64,000 nucleotides of DNA from Calocera cornea HHB12733. Lineage: Eukaryota; Basidiomycota; Dacrymycetes; Dacrymycetales; Dacrymycetaceae. A program made the position numbers and the translations under genes. The notes under the pieces are model-generated. The model saw only the letters and a list, made by a program, of their open reading frames with translations, ran no database searches and was not told where the DNA came from. Below, piece by piece: positions 21,675-55,730 of this stretch; the first letter of the stretch is position 1, and each line of letters begins with the position of its first letter. The stretch covers positions 135,776-199,775 of the forward strand of contig KV423914.1 in assembly GCA_001632435.1 (NCBI GenBank). The letters run 5' to 3'.

Positions 21675-24629
21675 TCACCAGCTCGTATTGGAGGACATGC
21701 CCAGCCTGGACCTCGTCGGCGTCCTCCTGGGCGTCGTCCTACGCTCGCTCTGCGCGAGCTGGGCCGGCACCGCACTAGCCACGACGGGCCCGTCCCCGCC
21801 GGCGGACTGGGCGGCGGTGCCCGCGACCATGAGCTCCGTCTGCCTGACCTTGTCCTCCAGCGCGCGCGTCTTGCTCTCGATCCACTGCAGCGTGCCCAGG
21901 TTCGAGTTGAGGATGGCGACGATCTGGCTCACGGGGTCCTCGGCCGCGGCGATGCTTGCCGGGTTGAGGCCGGAGGAGGAGAAGGAGAGGGAGGCAGCTG
22001 AGAGGCCCGCGCCCGCACCTGCACCGCCCGCACCAGCAGCGGAGAGCGCGTTGAGGGTGTCGATCATCTGGGCGAGGTTCCGGCTCATGTCGTCCAGCTC
22101 CCTGTTGAGCCTCTCCGCGAGCGCGTACGCGTCCTGGCGCGCCTTGTCCGCGGGCCTTAGGTCGCGCACGCCGCCCGTGCCCGCGTCCAGGCCCGAGGAG
22201 GTCAGCGTCTTGTAGGGCGAGGAGCCGAGGTTCTTCTCGAACATGGAGGAGAGGAGGGACTCGTACCCGTCGAGCGCGGCGGAGAGCTCCTTCTGCTGCG
22301 TCTCGACGTGCTCGAGCGAGCTGTCGACGAGCAGCTGCGTCCGCTCAGCGTCGTTCACGTCGCTCATGAGGTTCCCGATCTATTCACCCAGCGCACTTGG
22401 TCAGCACAGCCCACTCATCTCCAAACATGCGCAACGGAGAACGAAAGGAAGGAAGGAAGGAAGGAAAGCACGCACCAGCGCCCCATTCTCAAGCAGCATC
22501 CGATCCCACTGGGCGACCTCCCTCGCCAGCTCGCCAAACTCCCGCACAGAGCCCTCGAGGTCCTTCGACCACCGGTTCACGATATCCTCCATGCTGTGCC
22601 CCTGGAGGTGGGAGATCGAGGGCGAGGGGCGCGTCGTTGCTGCTGTTCCGGCGGCAGGGGCCGCGGTTGTCCCGGCGGCGGAGGCGGTGGGCGCGGCTGG
22701 GGCCGAGGGCACACCAAGCGCCGACGCGCCGAGCGTAGAGCTCCCCAGGGCCGGCGCATCCGCAGCTAGACGTAGCACAAATCCGTATCAGTATCAGCCA
22801 CACTCCAGACCTGCAGCTCGGAGCAGAATGCAAAATAACGCACGTCTCTTCCCCGCTCCGAGCAAGCTGAACCCCGATCCTCCCGCTCCTCCCGCTCCTC
22901 CCGCAGAGCCAGTGGTAGCAGGAGCAGGAGCGCCAAACGCGGGCAGACCAGGCGCAGGCTCCTTCCCCTTCTCCCCGCCCGCTCCCGCTCCAGCAGCAGC
23001 GCCAGCAGCGGGCGCGCCGGGCGCAGCACTAGGGAGCTTCCCAAACCCCTCGAACGGATTCTTCGGCGCGGCTGCCCCGGCCTCGGCCCCGGCCGCAGTA
23101 CCGGCCGCAGCGCCCGCCGCAGCGCCCGCCGCAGCGCCCGCCGTAGCACCCCCTGCAGCGGCAGGCGCAGCAGGCTTGGGGAGCCCGAAGCCCGCAAAGC
23201 CTCCCGGGCCCGCGGCCGTGCCGGTGCCGGTGCCCGCCGAGCCGGTCGTGGACGTGGCAGGGGCAGGGGCAGGGGCAGGGGCAGAACTGGGCTTTCCCAG
23301 GCCGCCGAAGAGGCCTCCTCCTGGTGCGGAGGGCGCGGTGGGTGCGGCGGCGGCGGCGGTGTTGGTGTTGCCGGTGGTGTTGGCTGCAGTGGTGGAGGGG
23401 GCTTCGCTAGGCGTTGAGGAGGCCGGAGGCTTGGGGAATGAGAACCCCGTGAATGCGCCCGAGCTGGTACTACCAGGGGCGGGAGCGGAGAACCCCGCGA
23501 AGCCTCCTGAAGCTGGAGCACCGGGCGCAGGAGCGCTGGGAGCGGCCGTTCCGCCCGCCGAGTCGGCGGGTTTGGGGCCGAGCCGAGAGAAGAGGCTGCC
23601 GCCGCTGGCGGGGGCGGTCGTGCCCGTCGAACCGGTGCTGCCGGTCGTGCCTGTCGCGGTAGTTGAGGGAGGAGCCCCAGCAGCAGCAGGTTTGTTGGCG
23701 AAAGCGGCGAACAGGCCTCCTCCCTGCGCCGAGGGGGCCGCGCTCGCACCGGCCCCGGCGGCTGCCGTGTCCCCGTGCGCGGTAGAGCTAGCAGGCGGCT
23801 TGGGGAAAGAGAACGCCCCCGCCGCCCCGGGCGCAGGGGCCGAGAAGCCGCCGAAGCCGCCTGTGCTGAGAGCGGTGGTGGTGCCGGTGGTGGTGGTGGT
23901 GTTTGTGCCGGTGCCGGTGCCGGTGGAAGAAGCGGGTTTGGCACCGAAGGCTGCGAAGAGACCGCCTCCCGGTGGGTTGGTGCTGGCTGTGGCTGGGGCG
24001 GCGGTGCTGGTGGTGCCGCCGGGGGCGTCGGCCGGTTTGGGGAATGAGAAGCCTGCGAAGCCTCCTGATGCGGGGGCGCCAGTGGTGGGAGCGGGCGGGG
24101 CAGCTGTGCCTGCAGGCGCAGAAGGCTTGAATGCTCCGAAGCCCGCGAACGCGCCTCCTGCAGGCGCACCCGGTGCGGGCGTCGTGGCAGCAGGAGGTGC
24201 CCCCGAGGCGGGGGCGGGCTGGGTGAACGCTGAGAAGAGCCCTCCTGCGGGCGCGGGGGTCGAGGCGGGGGGGGTGGACATGGGCGCGGAGGACTCGGGC
24301 GGCTTGGGGAAGGAGAAGGCGGTGAGCCCGCCCGTTGGGGCCGAGGAGGAAGTGGGCGGGGCGGGTGCGCCGGCGGAGGGAGCCGCCTGCCTGCCGAACG
24401 CGGAGAAGAGCGCTCCCCCGCCGGTGGAGGCGGGTGCGCCGAACGCGTTTGTGGAGGAGGGCGGGGCGCCGCCGGGCGTGGTGGACCCCGCGGGCGCGGT
24501 GGGGAATGAGAATGCCGGGGCGGGCGTGGAGAACGCGGGCAAGGCTGCTGCGGCTGGTGCGCCGGGCTGCCCGAACGCTGAGAAGGCGCCTGCTGCGCCT
24601 GTGCCTTGAGGGGGGTTGCCGCCGGACAT
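21675..24629 (-). CDS. NSP1: FG nucleoporin NSP1/NUP62
   Basis: Central-channel nucleoporin. Exons 24629-22844, 22765-22476 and 22379-21675 give 926 residues. The first 600 or so residues are low-complexity Ala/Pro/Gly/Thr sequence with many FG units (FSAFG, FAGFS, FGGFS, LFAAFG, FSFPKP), which bind transport receptors. The C-terminal coiled coil carries the Nsp1_C signature: SMEDIVNRWSKDLEGSVREF, LAREVAQWDRMLLENGALIG, SSLEHVETQQKELSAALDGY and DPVSQIVAILNSNLGTLQWI. This part forms the Nsp1-Nup57-Nup49 (Nup62) complex. Length is close to yeast Nsp1. The gene starts 515 bp from the HAC1-type gene on the other strand. The second intron contains a GGAA repeat near 22446-22468. Confidence 0.95.
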
Positions 24630-25143
24630 GATCGTCCCCTTGGTCGGTCTCGTGCAGCGAGTCGCGTTTTCAGACGGCGAGCACTCGCAGCGAACCGCAG
24701 CGAACAAGGGACGCACCACCGCACGCCTGGGTGGCGAGATGCCAGCGCCACCACGTGCAGGCGCAGAGTGGCGTCACAGTGGCGACCGCCGTCTTTTGCT
24801 CGAAGCTTCGCACGCGCCCGTGCCCGTCGTAACCGCGCAGTGCGGTGCATCGTGCGGTGTCACAGCCCCTGTTTTGCTCCCGTTGGCCGCAGCCCGCTTT
24901 AAGGGGGCGGGTTCCACGTCGCCCCCCCTGTCCGCCACGACCGCCCTCTGCTCGGAACACGTCCTTCCCTCCCTTTTCACCTACTCCCTCCACGCACACC
25001 CACTAGCTAGCCTAGTTGTACCACTCTCGCCCACCACGTCCCCGTCTCATCCTCATCGTCACCACCACCACCACCACCACCACCACAAACAACCAACGGC
25101 CTCCCCCGACCGCAAAATAATACCAACACCGCCAGAGAGAGCC
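24630..25143. promoter_or_regulatory. Bidirectional promoter between NSP1 and the HAC1-type gene
   Basis: 514-bp spacer between divergent start codons. A CAC trinucleotide run at about 25058-25085 probably lies in the 5' leader of the bZIP mRNA. No specific factor site is assigned. Confidence 0.5.
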
Positions 25144-26393
25144 ATGGACGCAATCGCACCCCACCTCCTCACGCGCCAGTCCTCCGTCGACTCCTCCGCA
25201 GACTCATCAAAGGACGACGACCACAACTCGCGCAAGCGGCGCAGGCCCAACGACCCCCCGCACGAGGCACCCCCGACCCCGGGGCCAGACGCCACCCCGG
25301 AGGAGCGCCGCGCCGCCCGCGCACAGAGGAACAGGATCGCCGCACAGAGCAGCCGCGACCGCCGCAAGGAGGAGCACCGCTACCTCCGCGACCGCATCGC
25401 CGAGCTCGAGCGGGAGAACCAGCTGCTCCGCGCGGGCCACTTCCTGCCCCACGCACTCACCAGCCCCGCGCCCTCCTCCGCCTCCCTCGACTCTCCGCCC
25501 ACCGCCGGCCCAGCCGACCAGTGGAAGCGCGACATCTCCCTCGACTCTCCGCCCACCGCCGGCCCAGCCGACCAGTGGAAGCGCGACATCGAGAGCGAGA
25601 ACCTGGAGCTCCGGTCAAAGGTCGCCAACCTCGAGCGCATGTTCGCCCTCATCGCACCCGCCGCCATGCACCCCCTCGCCTCCTCAAGTACTTCACCCCT
25701 CCCAGCCAGCGCAACCCCGGTCGCAGCACATACCCTTCAGAGCGTGCCCACTCGCCACCTAGCACGGGTGGCGACCGACTCCCTGGTGGAGTCGGCCCCG
25801 CAGCGGGTGGGCACCAATCCGCACTCTCCCCCCTTCCTCAGAACCCCCTCGCCCTCGACCGGGCACACGCAGACTGGCTCCTCTCCCTCCTCCACTCCGG
25901 CCACCCCCTCGCTGCCGCTCTCCCCGTCCCCGCCGCTCTCCCAGTCCTTTCTTCGCCTACGACGAAGACTGAGCCGGCCGCAGACGCGGTCCCGTCCTTC
26001 ACGCCGATGCTCGCATCCCCGTTCAACCAAGGACAGGCCCTCCCGCTTCCGCCTACGGATAGCACAGCAGCACTGGCCGCGGCCCTCCGCACGGCCGCCC
26101 TGGAGCTGACCTTCCTCCCGACGCCCTCGACGTCCTCGTACGCCGGCTCCGAGCTGGACTTTACCGAGTTCGCCCTCGAGCCCGTGCAAGTCCCCGAGCC
26201 GTCCGCGGCGGACGCAGCGTCGACAGCCCTCGTGGAGGAGATGATGAGCAAGTACCTGAACGACATGGTCTCGGACCAGAGCTGGGCCTGGGAGGCGTGC
26301 GGGCACGACACGAGCGATGAGACCAAGGACGTGATGACCACCCCCCTTACCACCACCACCACCAATGGAGCGACAGAAGTAAACGTGTTCTGA
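25144..26393 (+). CDS. HAC1: HAC1/XBP1-type bZIP transcription factor of the unfolded protein response
   Basis: Master regulator of ER stress genes. The basic region RRAARAQRNRIAAQSSRDRR, followed by a leucine zipper (RIAELERENQLLR), matches the HacA/XBP1 type (NR-x-AAQ-x-x-R-D/E-R). The reading frame from 25144 would end at 26109 after a tail without features. A different frame is open to 26393 and encodes an acidic, hydrophobic C-terminus (ALDRAHADWLLSLLHSGH, SELDFTEFALEPVQVPEP, MMSKYLNDMVSDQSWAW) typical of an activation domain. Removing 25763-25785 (23 nt) joins the two frames to give 408 residues, and these cut points fall in the loops of two adjacent hairpins. This is the arrangement of IRE1-processed HAC1/XBP1 mRNA. 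A conventional 53-nt GT-AG intron at 25688-25740 would give the same downstream frame and is not excluded. An 18-residue tandem duplication follows the zipper. Confidence 0.85.
25483..25590 (+). repeat. 54-bp in-frame tandem duplication in the bZIP gene
   Basis: Two adjacent 54-bp copies (25483-25536 and 25537-25590), identical by eye, each encode SLDSPPTAGPADQWKRDI just after the leucine zipper. Identity between copies implies a recent duplication or an assembly artefact. Confidence 0.9.
25744..25814 (+). promoter_or_regulatory. Predicted IRE1-type splice-site RNA structure in HAC1-like mRNA
   Basis: Closing stem GTGCCCAC (25744-25751) pairs with GTGGGCAC (25807-25814). Directly inside it, TCGCCACC (25752-25759) pairs with GGTGGCGA (25767-25774) around the 7-nt loop TAGCACG. 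Immediately next, CCGACTCC (25775-25782) pairs with GGAGTCGG (25788-25795) around CTGGT. All three 8-bp helices are perfect. Cuts after TAG (25762) and CTG (25785) free 23 nt and shift frame into the long C-terminus. The 3' site CTG/GTG fits the CNG/NNG pattern; the 5' site TAG/CAC keeps only the G before the cut. Confidence 0.75.
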
Positions 26394-27284
26394 GTACGGC
26401 ATTTCCTTTTTCCATCTCCCGATCTCTCCATTTCTTGTTATCCGCCTGTGTCCCGTCTCCCTTCTCCATAGTAGACACCAGTGGTCGTCCCCGCCTTTCC
26501 TCCTCCCTGTCTTCCCGACGCATCTGTACCCCTCCTCCTCCCCTCCACCGCACCCCGCTTCCTTCCCTCACCCCGCCTCCTCTCCTCCCCCTACCAAACC
26601 CAGACCCAGACACCCCCACCCTCTACGCTACGCGATCAGCTGCCTCCCCCCGGGTCGCAGGCGGCAGATTGCGAGAAATAGGGTACGCTTTGTCTGGCGA
26701 TGGGCTGAGGCGCGGGCTGGGGAGCGGGGCTGGGTGGGTGGGTGGGTGCTCCGTGTGCTGGTTGGTTGCGACGTTGGTTGCGAGGCTGGTGTATGAGCGC
26801 GGGTCTTAGGTAGTAATCGATTTGGTTGGGGACGTATATGCGCGTGTGTGGACAGCAAGTCGATTCCAGTCTGAACGCACGTCCGCCGAAGCGCAAGGTC
26901 CCGTGGTGGCACTCGAGCGCTGCTCAATATATGCAGTCGTTTGGGAGCATATCCGTGCGCCTCTGCCACAGTTCTTTCCCGATGAGCGAGCGCGGTGTCT
27001 ATGGTGGTGGAAAGTACCAAAGCCGTTCCTGGCATCACTACTGACTGACTGACAGTATTCATGCCGTCTAAGGAGACGGGCACACGGCACCGCACCGTTG
27101 CCAGCGCTGGACTGTCCCTCCCTCCCGCGACCTCTGGATAAGCGCAACCGTGCAAGGAAGATGAAGGCGCTACGGCCCAACGCCAATGTGACGGTGTCCA
27201 CCAGCAGTCCCAATACATGGCCAATCCAGTGCCTGCCCAGTACGGCGTCCCCCGCCCCAGACCCCACTCTCCAACCACAAGGAC
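26394..27284. other. Convergent intergenic region
   Basis: 3' flanks of the bZIP gene and of LCL2. Pyrimidine-rich after the bZIP stop. No gene recognised. Confidence 0.5.
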
Positions 27285-55314: not shown

Positions 55315-55609
55315 NNNNNNNNNNNNNNNNNNNNNNNNNNNNNNNNNNNNNNNNNNNNNNNNNNNNNNNNNNNNNNNNNNNNNNNNNNNNNNNNNNNNNN
55401 NNNNNNNNNNNNNNNNNNNNNNNNNNNNNNNNNNNNNNNNNNNNNNNNNNNNNNNNNNNNNNNNNNNNNNNNNNNNNNNNNNNNNNNNNNNNNNNNNNNN
55501 NNNNNNNNNNNNNNNNNNNNNNNNNNNNNNNNNNNNNNNNNNNNNNNNNNNNNNNNNNNNNNNNNNNNNNNNNNNNNNNNNNNNNNNNNNNNNNNNNNNN
55601 NNNNNNNNN
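55315..55609. other. Assembly gap (295 N)
   Basis: Undetermined bases between the LEU2 promoter and a repeat-rich region. Confidence 1.
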
Positions 55610-55673
55610 GTCAAGGTACACATGGTTAGGAGTACTGGTTAGGCACAGTTCCACTAACTGTTAGGTTGCTTTG

Positions 55674-55730
55674 CCCAAACTGTTAGGGTTAGGGTTGGGG
55701 ATGGGTTAAGGTTAGGGTAGGGGTTAGGTA
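55674..55730 (+). repeat. Degenerate telomere-like TTAGGG repeats
   Basis: A run of imperfect units (GTTAGGGTTAGGGTTGGGG, GGTTAAGGTTAGGG, TAGGGGTTAGG) just after the gap. The canonical fungal telomere unit is TTAGGG, but this array is short and mixed. Confidence 0.75.

What the first reader, a model, noticed from the sequence alone, without database searches (positions are those of the whole stretch)
25744..25814. IRE1-type non-spliceosomal intron in a basidiomycete HAC1/XBP1 bZIP gene
Seen: the bZIP frame and the long C-terminal frame are out of register, and the switch region folds into three perfect 8-bp helices with no unpaired bases between the first three strands. Two side-by-side hairpins sit inside a closing stem. 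Cutting after G25762 and G25785, both inside hairpin loops, removes 23 nt and joins the frames (206 codons + 1 nt, then 608 nt to the stop at 26393). Known: HAC1 and XBP1 mRNAs are cut by IRE1 in two neighbouring hairpin loops, after G, shifting frame into an activation domain. Inference: this is the organism's unfolded-protein-response switch. The 5-nt 3' loop and a 5' loop lacking the usual C(-3) and G(+3) would make it a divergent version of the site. Unspliced mRNA would give a 321-residue protein with a featureless tail.
Basis: partly seen in the sequence, partly recalled or inferred. Interest (0 to 1): 0.88.

Follow-up and report, generated by a model that had tools for sequence, protein, structure and literature searches.

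The report
IRE1-spliced stress-switch intron in jelly fungus
A jelly fungus carries a gene for a stress-response master switch whose messenger RNA is very probably cut and rejoined by the stress sensor IRE1 rather than by the normal splicing machinery, using a 38-base piece whose first cut site departs from the textbook rule, apparently in the same way in related mushroom-forming fungi.

Summary
In detail: three perfect 8-bp helices, out-of-register frames and a frame-restoring excision lie at the stated coordinates, and the element folds best of 75 windows along the ORF against synonymous recodings. The gene is the HAC1/XBP1-type bZIP gene of Calocera cornea (Dacrymycetes). Relatives keep two blocks in the unspliced frame: TRHLARVA (the 5' hairpin) and [L/Q/P]QRV, which can encode the canonical IRE1 loop CNG|CAGC. 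In the window that loop is CCG|CAGC at 25798-25804, inside the 11 nt called unpaired. Predicted intron: 25763-25800, 38 nt, giving ...PTRHLAAGGHQS..., 403 residues. I predicted this junction, then found TRHLAAGG in 4 of 40 returned proteins, from Trametes, Cristinia and Gelatoporia; enumeration found no GT-AG or GC-AG join that makes it. The deposited C. cornea model instead removes 25688-25740, which relatives keep as protein. The 5' loop (UAG|CACG) lacks C(-3) and G(+3). IRE1 and ligase domains are in the genome. Excision itself is not shown for this fungus.

The parts
25144..25762 (+). exon 1: bZIP frame, 206 codons + 1 nt, ending at the 5' cut
   Evidence: bZIP_2 E 2.6e-08, bZIP_1 E 8.9e-08
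25763..25800 (+). predicted IRE1-type intron, 38 nt (2 mod 3)
   Evidence: conserved [L/Q/P]QRV = CNG|CAGC; exact TRHLAAGG junction in four deposited relatives; inferred for this gene
25801..26393 (+). exon 2: C-terminal frame, 593 nt including stop; spliced product 403 aa
   Evidence: Dacryopinax P0002 is 64% identical over the whole 408-aa query, C-terminal frame included
25144..26109 (+). unspliced ORF, 321 aa plus stop
25744..25751 (+). closing stem, 5' strand
25752..25774 (+). 5' splice-site hairpin, 8 bp, loop UAG|CACG (25760-25766); encodes the conserved (T)RHLARVA
25796..25806 (+). 3' splice site: CC-[CCG|CAGC]-GG, canonical 7-nt IRE1 loop on a possible 2-bp stem; cut expected after G25800
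   Evidence: sequence; motif rule from PMC8104961 (passages); the 2-bp stem has a predicted probability of only 0.02
25807..25814 (+). closing stem, 3' strand
25688..25740 (+). 53-nt GT-AG stretch removed in the deposited model P0001 (SS|KRAHSPPS); judged a gene-model artefact

Best explanation
This is the unfolded-protein-response switch of the fungus. Unspliced mRNA encodes a bZIP protein with an Arg/Pro/Ser-rich tail. When ER stress activates IRE1, it cuts after G25762 (5' hairpin, UAG|CACG) and after G25800 (3' site, CCG|CAGC); a Trl1-type tRNA ligase then joins the exons (G|CA restores an Ala codon), removing 38 nt. The frame shifts into a 403-residue protein with a conserved C-terminal region (activation domain by analogy). 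Shown: the frames, the helices, the canonical 3' loop, the conserved blocks in relatives, the exact junction in four deposited relatives, and IRE1 RNase and ligase domains in the genome. Inferred: the cleavage, the ligation, stress dependence, and activity of the C-terminal region.
For: Frames and helices. Conservation: a T[RC]H[LS] block in 133 of 136 retrieved proteins; 101 of 136 match a pattern with both the TRHLARVA-type and QRV-type blocks. In those 101, at positions the pattern left free, the residue before QR is L 84, Q 15 or P 2: all have C at codon position 1 and all can be CNG; the residue before that is S 68, P 21 or A 12, all able to have C at codon position 2. Implied introns are 35-53 nt. 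Prediction test: TRHL-A|A-GG was written into the query before the search; of the 40 proteins returned, 4 have exactly TRHLAAGG: P0121 Trametes elegans, P0122 T. maxima, P0128 Cristinia sonorae, P0130 Gelatoporia subvermispora. Enumerating codons of the two blocks, 0 GT-AG or GC-AG joins give HLAAG, so I infer transcript-based models. Machinery: IRE1 RNase domain over Pfam cut-off; solved-structure matches are mostly IRE1, best 2rio_A E 3.9e-36 and 3fbv_A E 4.1e-36, with RNK.HH intact; RNA_lig_T4_1 domain E 7.7e-57 (its link to Trl1 is recalled). One match to the element in the genome.
Against: No transcript of this fungus was examined. No relative's DNA could be read, so base-pair covariation was tested only through proteins: the closing-stem association (P with G, S with D; Fisher p 3e-10) is not significant once the tree is considered. 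Thermodynamics do not favour the 2-bp stem at the 3' site (probability 0.02; the minimum-energy fold pairs the region differently). The 5' loop fails two of the four motif positions. The deposited model for the same locus uses a different intron, and I cannot see what supports it. Of 39 proteins judged to reach the C-terminal frame (classes A, C, D), only 4 use this junction. The pattern used itself demanded AR and QR[VIM] and allowed only a few letters at some positions, so conservation at those positions is partly built in.
Confidence: 0.86

Rival explanations
1. IRE1-type intron of 23 nt, cut after G25762 and G25785.
For: Hairpin 25775-25795 is perfect and adjacent to the 5' hairpin; frame outcome is the same.
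Against: Loop CUGGU is 5 nt and has G at +1; the yeast motif is CNG|(C/A)NGN in a 7-nt loop (PMC8104961, passages). The codons DS..E[ST] of this hairpin are seen only in P0003-P0005 among the listed relatives, whereas the [L/Q/P]QRV block is in 101 of 136 proteins. The four exact junctions fit a cut at CNG|CAGC.
Confidence: 0.05
2. Ordinary spliceosomal 53-nt intron 25688-25740 removed constitutively, as in the deposited model CALCODRAFT_478719.
For: GT...AG borders, a length I recall as usual for fungi, same frame result; P0001 is identical to the window's gene with this stretch removed.
Against: The stretch encodes residues kept in frame by C. viscosa (SATPVAADTLQNV), P0004 and Dacryopinax. 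The Dacryopinax model joins elsewhere (HLAPGG) and C. viscosa's model does not join at all. It leaves the RNA element and the conserved CNG|CAGC unexplained.
Confidence: 0.05
3. The element is an IRE1 decay (RIDD-type) site or structured pause site; the C-terminal frame is reached by ribosomal frameshifting.
For: Strong structure beside a frame change; the genome's IRE1 has the S. pombe-like interface pattern that PMC8104961 links to RIDD ability.
Against: In four deposited models TRHLA is followed directly by AGG, without the residues between two IRE1-like sites; frameshifting would keep them. No slippery site was sought.
Confidence: 0.03

Closest known systems
Cryptococcus neoformans HXL1 unconventional intron (PMC3154848, passages)
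   Same: Basidiomycete bZIP mRNA cut in an Ire1-dependent way; short intron (56 nt, also 2 mod 3); different C terminus before and after splicing.
   Different: The authors name conserved CAG at both borders as the likely splice sites; here the 5' border is UAG|CAC. Intron 38 nt here. They call Hxl1 without sequence homology to known Hac1/Xbp1 proteins.
XBP1 / HAC1 / hacA introns of animals and ascomycetes
   Same: Two cuts after G in loops of paired sites (PMC4891664, passages); intron removal changes the frame; the 3' loop CCGCAGC fits CNG|(C/A)NGN.
   Different: The 5' loop lacks C(-3) and G(+3); 3' stem possibly only 2 bp; extra 8-bp hairpin inside the intron.
Agaricomycete proteins named 'X-box-binding protein 1' by UniProt (for example Dichomitus, Grifola, Botryobasidium)
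   Same: Same family by profile search; TRHLA block present.
   Different: Names only; 92 of the 136 retrieved proteins read through the element and most of the rest join the frames elsewhere.

Membership tests
HAC1/XBP1-type IRE1 substrate | bZIP transcription factor encoded in the 5' frame | tested here: met
   bZIP_2 34.3 bits (cut-off 22.3), bZIP_1 32.6 (27.6)
HAC1/XBP1-type IRE1 substrate | a stretch whose removal between two IRE1-like sites fuses a different, conserved C-terminal frame | tested here: met
   (38 nt, 403 aa); excision itself not observed
HAC1/XBP1-type IRE1 substrate | 3' site loop CNG|(C/A)NGN, 7 nt | tested here: met
   CCG|CAGC 25798-25804; residue before QR is L, Q or P in 101 of the 101 proteins that matched the pattern
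HAC1/XBP1-type IRE1 substrate | 5' site loop CNG|(C/A)NGN, 7 nt | tested here: not met
   UAG|CACG: U at -3 and C at +3. Relatives with Leu-Ala-Arg would have the same if Leu is CTN and Arg CGN (99 of the 101 pattern matches have Leu; the pattern demanded AR); their DNA was not seen
HAC1/XBP1-type IRE1 substrate | hairpin stem at the 3' site | tested here: inconclusive
   2-bp stem possible; pair probability 0.02
HAC1/XBP1-type IRE1 substrate | IRE1 and an RNA ligase present in the genome | tested here: met
HAC1/XBP1-type IRE1 substrate | stress-induced, IRE1-dependent removal of the intron | not testable with these tools
   needs RNA
Spliceosomal GT-AG intron 25688-25740 | stretch is non-coding and treated as intron in close relatives | tested here: not met
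   C. viscosa, P0004 and Dacryopinax keep it as protein

The most novel reading that the evidence does not exclude
In Dacrymycetes and Agaricomycetes IRE1 reads the two ends of its intron by different rules: a canonical CNG|CAGC loop at the 3' end and a non-canonical UNG|CNCG loop at the 5' end, the latter made tolerable by a rigid junction in which stem, 5' hairpin and 3' site abut without spacers, and by an IRE1 dimer interface of the relaxed type (A/D/K at positions matching yeast 988/992/1059). Such asymmetry could impose an order of cutting, 3' site first.
Probability: 0.45. Interest if true: 0.7.

Novelty: new variant of a known kind. Interest (0 to 1): 0.6.

Why it matters
It gives exact, testable splice coordinates for the unfolded-protein-response switch in mushroom-forming and jelly fungi, where most of the deposited or predicted proteins retrieved here do not show the predicted junction (4 of 136 do). 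One genome paper (PMC4101180, passage seen) reports finding no clear Hac1/XBP1 orthologue in Pycnoporus cinnabarinus, while a protein of Trametes cinnabarina, which I recall to be the same species, is in this family (P0126). The apparent shared breach of the 5' loop rule offers a natural test of what IRE1 really reads in RNA.

Tried and rejected
The 23-nt intron was rejected on motif and conservation. The 53-nt GT-AG intron was rejected on protein conservation and differing models, not on RNA. A sequencing frameshift error was rejected because the frame offset recurs in relatives. Rfam: 7 matches up to E 10 in 25100-26500, none reaching its gathering score. Looking for relatives' DNA led nowhere: viral contigs 0 matches; genome contigs 2 bacterial contigs, not examined further and taken as chance. 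Protein-level covariation of the closing stem looked strong by Fisher test (44, 9, 1, 20) but rests on few independent changes (10 for P/S, 3 for G/D over 82 rows; of 6 supported independent pairs 1-2 go the same way, 0 the other, the rest unchanged; with pairs chosen by G/D there are only 2), so I do not count it. One search's counts in the real window were inflated by a run of N; one search repeats them without N. One search used a stricter pattern (91 of 120 proteins) than (101 of 136), which also took 7 TCHLA variants. The first sorting of gene models (4, 96, 5, 24, 4, 3) used too narrow a mark of the C-terminal frame; one search redoes it (4, 92, 9, 26, 2, 3) and is still rough (P0045 in the read-through class also looks joined later).

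Literature: I found no description of this intron in Agaricomycetes or Dacrymycetes in the listings of nine searches of an open-access library: 3 of 3 papers listed; 20 of 36; 9 of 9; 20 of 52; 20 of 30; 20 of 492; 20 of 156; 10 of 1,466; 10 of 24. I read passages only of PMC4891664, PMC3154848, PMC4101180, PMC8104961, PMC6222058 and PMC4836707. Hooks and Griffiths-Jones 2011, the likeliest place, is not held, so prior description is possible.

Full report
What was checked. The three helices, the two frames, the 321-aa unspliced product and the frame-restoring excision are exactly where the finding puts them. The 71-nt element folds at -46.3 kcal/mol, below all 200 dinucleotide shuffles (z -4.08). 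With the protein held constant, 1 of 2000 synonymous recodings folds as low, and among 75 overlapping windows of 72 nt along the ORF it ranks first (z -3.6; mean of all 0.09, sd 1.1). It is the only place on the + strand of the window with two adjacent hairpins inside a closing stem, each stem of 6 or more perfect pairs; simulated sequence gives a mean of 0.25 matches per 64 kb at 6 bp and none in 20 sequences at 7 bp. In a wider 251-nt context the total folding energy is not unusual (z -1.04).

What gene it is. The protein is a bZIP factor. The best database hit, P0001, is Calocera cornea HHB12733 CALCODRAFT_478719; it is letter for letter the window's gene with 25688-25740 removed. The genome is 32.1 Mb in 302 contigs. 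C. cornea is in Dacrymycetes, Agaricomycotina. The next hits include Dacryopinax primogenitus, Calocera viscosa and unnamed relatives. A profile search (query A1: the window's unspliced protein and 6 of the 8 first hits; P0001 and P0002 left out because their models skip the region) gave 511 proteins, of which the best 120 were listed and analysed.

The decisive pattern. Relatives read through the element in the unspliced frame as TRHLARVA[T/N]...[L/Q/P]QRV[G/D]. Of all 136 proteins retrieved in three searches, 133 have a T[RC]H[LS]-type block and 101 match a pattern with both blocks. Of the other 35, 32 have the first block and part from the pattern where their model joins something else, and 3 lack the first block (P0001, P0061, P0129). 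The first block is the 5' hairpin written in codons: R pairs with A, H with V, and the first base of L with the last of R, leaving the loop U-N-G-C-N-C-G. The variants that the pattern allowed fit this: R to C (7 of 101), A to V (12) and V to M (5) each permit a standard or G-U pair with a suitable partner; these positions were not free in the pattern, so they are weak evidence. Positions left free are more telling. The residue after RV[AV] is T 77, N 19, S 3, I 1, P 1: 100 of 101 can start with A, the base that pairs in the window. The residue before QR is L 84, Q 15 or P 2, amino acids with little in common except C at the first codon position and membership of the four that CNG encodes. A random set of three different residues drawn from these proteins shares C at position 1 in 2.3% of draws. 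With Q as CAG and R as CGN this spells CNG|CAGC, fitting the motif CNG|(C/A)NGN that PMC8104961 gives for yeast Ire1 (passages). In the window it is CCG|CAGC at 25798-25804. The 101 proteins are related and not independent.

Consequence. Cutting after G25762 and G25800 removes 38 nt, keeps the frame change, and gives a 403-aa protein reading ...SVPTRHLAAGGHQSALSPL.... The same logic implies introns of 35 to 53 nt in the 101 relatives, not far from the 56 nt of Cryptococcus HXL1 (PMC3154848, passages). The hairpin with loop CUGGU becomes an intron-internal stem; the residues that encode it (DSLVES) have counterparts in P0003-P0005, where DSLAES, DSLVET and DSPVES occur. The Thr in P0004 breaks one pair.

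A prediction that came back. I wrote the predicted junction into a Ganoderma protein (TRHLAAGG in place of TRHLARVATTDAPPGG) and searched with the stretch around it (40 proteins among 352 candidates). Four deposited proteins carry exactly TRHLAAGG: Trametes elegans, Trametes maxima, Cristinia sonorae (Agaricales) and Gelatoporia subvermispora (Polyporales). The search favoured this junction by design, and the other 36 proteins returned do not show it. Enumerating the codons of the two blocks (H-L-A-R-V on the left; S/P/A, a C-starting codon, Q, R, V, G/D/E on the right), no GT-AG or GC-AG join gives HLAAG, while the IRE1-type join does. I therefore infer that these four models follow transcripts; I saw neither their DNA nor their evidence. 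Over all 136 proteins (rough sorting): 4 exact junctions, 92 read-through, 9 with both blocks joined later, 26 with other joins reaching the C-terminal frame, 2 other, 3 without the block. Related species thus resolve the same frame offset in many different ways, as expected if the real border is not a splice site known to gene finders. Dacryopinax HLAPGG and Polyporales DAPPGG fit an AG acceptor at CAG|CGG with a GT further upstream (inference from codons).

The GT-AG rival. P0001 reads LASS|KRAHSPPS, the 53-nt join 25688-25740. The removed stretch encodes STSPLPASATPVAAHTLQS; C. viscosa keeps STVSVSATPVAADTLQN, P0004 STSSVTANPVAADTLQS and Dacryopinax SVQPTPVAPDIPQS in frame, directly before VPTRHLA. 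I judge it a modelling artefact, not excluded without RNA.

Structure at the 3' site. If C25796-G25806 and C25797-G25805 pair, the CCGCAGC loop is exactly 7 nt and all 71 bases belong to a four-way junction without spare nucleotides. Folding does not support this on its own: energy -42.3 against -41.6 for three helices and -46.3 for the best fold, pair probability 0.02. The ensemble also closes U25760-G25766 (probability 0.92), which would shrink the 5' loop to 5 nt. The 3' site therefore rests on sequence, conservation and the junction proteins, not on folding.

The odd 5' loop. UAG|CACG keeps G(-1) and C(+1) but not C(-3) and G(+3). Where relatives keep Leu-Ala-Arg, and if Leu is CTN and Arg CGN, they share the departure: of the 101 pattern matches, 99 have Leu and 2 Ser, and the TRHLAR string is printed for most of the 120. 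Their DNA was not seen, so this is inference. Cryptococcus is reported to have CAG at both borders. The genome's IRE1 aligns to the chain 3fbv, named as S. cerevisiae Ire1 in PMC8104961, with A, D and K at 988, 992 and 1059 (numbering counted by me from the alignment; exon border seen). This is the S. pombe-like pattern that the paper associates with relaxed recognition and finds in 175 of 230 orthologues, human included; it is common, and only permits the odd loop.

Machinery and copy number. The IRE1 RNase domain is on C22; the ligase domain RNA_lig_T4_1, which I recall from Trl1, is on C92; a DNA search of the genome with the element gave one match, the locus itself.

Verdict. An IRE1-type intron in a HAC1/XBP1 gene, conserved, with a corrected 3' site and a non-canonical 5' loop: a new variant of a known kind. 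Whether the Agaricomycotina intron was described before is not settled, because the main survey (Hooks and Griffiths-Jones 2011) could not be read.

Noticed in passing
25482-25590: Perfect tandem duplication of a 54-bp unit in the bZIP gene (LDSPPTAGPADQWKRDI twice); single in C. viscosa, P0004 and Dacryopinax.
   Followed up: partly
22797-24629 (- strand): Divergent neighbour: 611-aa Gly/Ala/Pro-rich repetitive ORF with many GLF and FSFPKP repeats (FG-nucleoporin-like by eye); no Pfam match up to E 0.1.
   Followed up: partly
55315-55728: Assembly gap (295 N in the window) followed by degenerate TTAGGG-like repeats at 55682-55728: an internal telomere-like stretch or a misjoin.
   Followed up: no
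P0126 (Trametes cinnabarina): This family's protein in Trametes cinnabarina, which I recall to be Pycnoporus cinnabarinus, whose genome paper reports no clear Hac1/XBP1 orthologue.
   Followed up: partly
25144-26109 unspliced tail: The unspliced tail is rich in Arg, Pro and Ser and is similar among the Calocera-type relatives, though it partly overlaps the conserved C-terminal frame.
   Followed up: no
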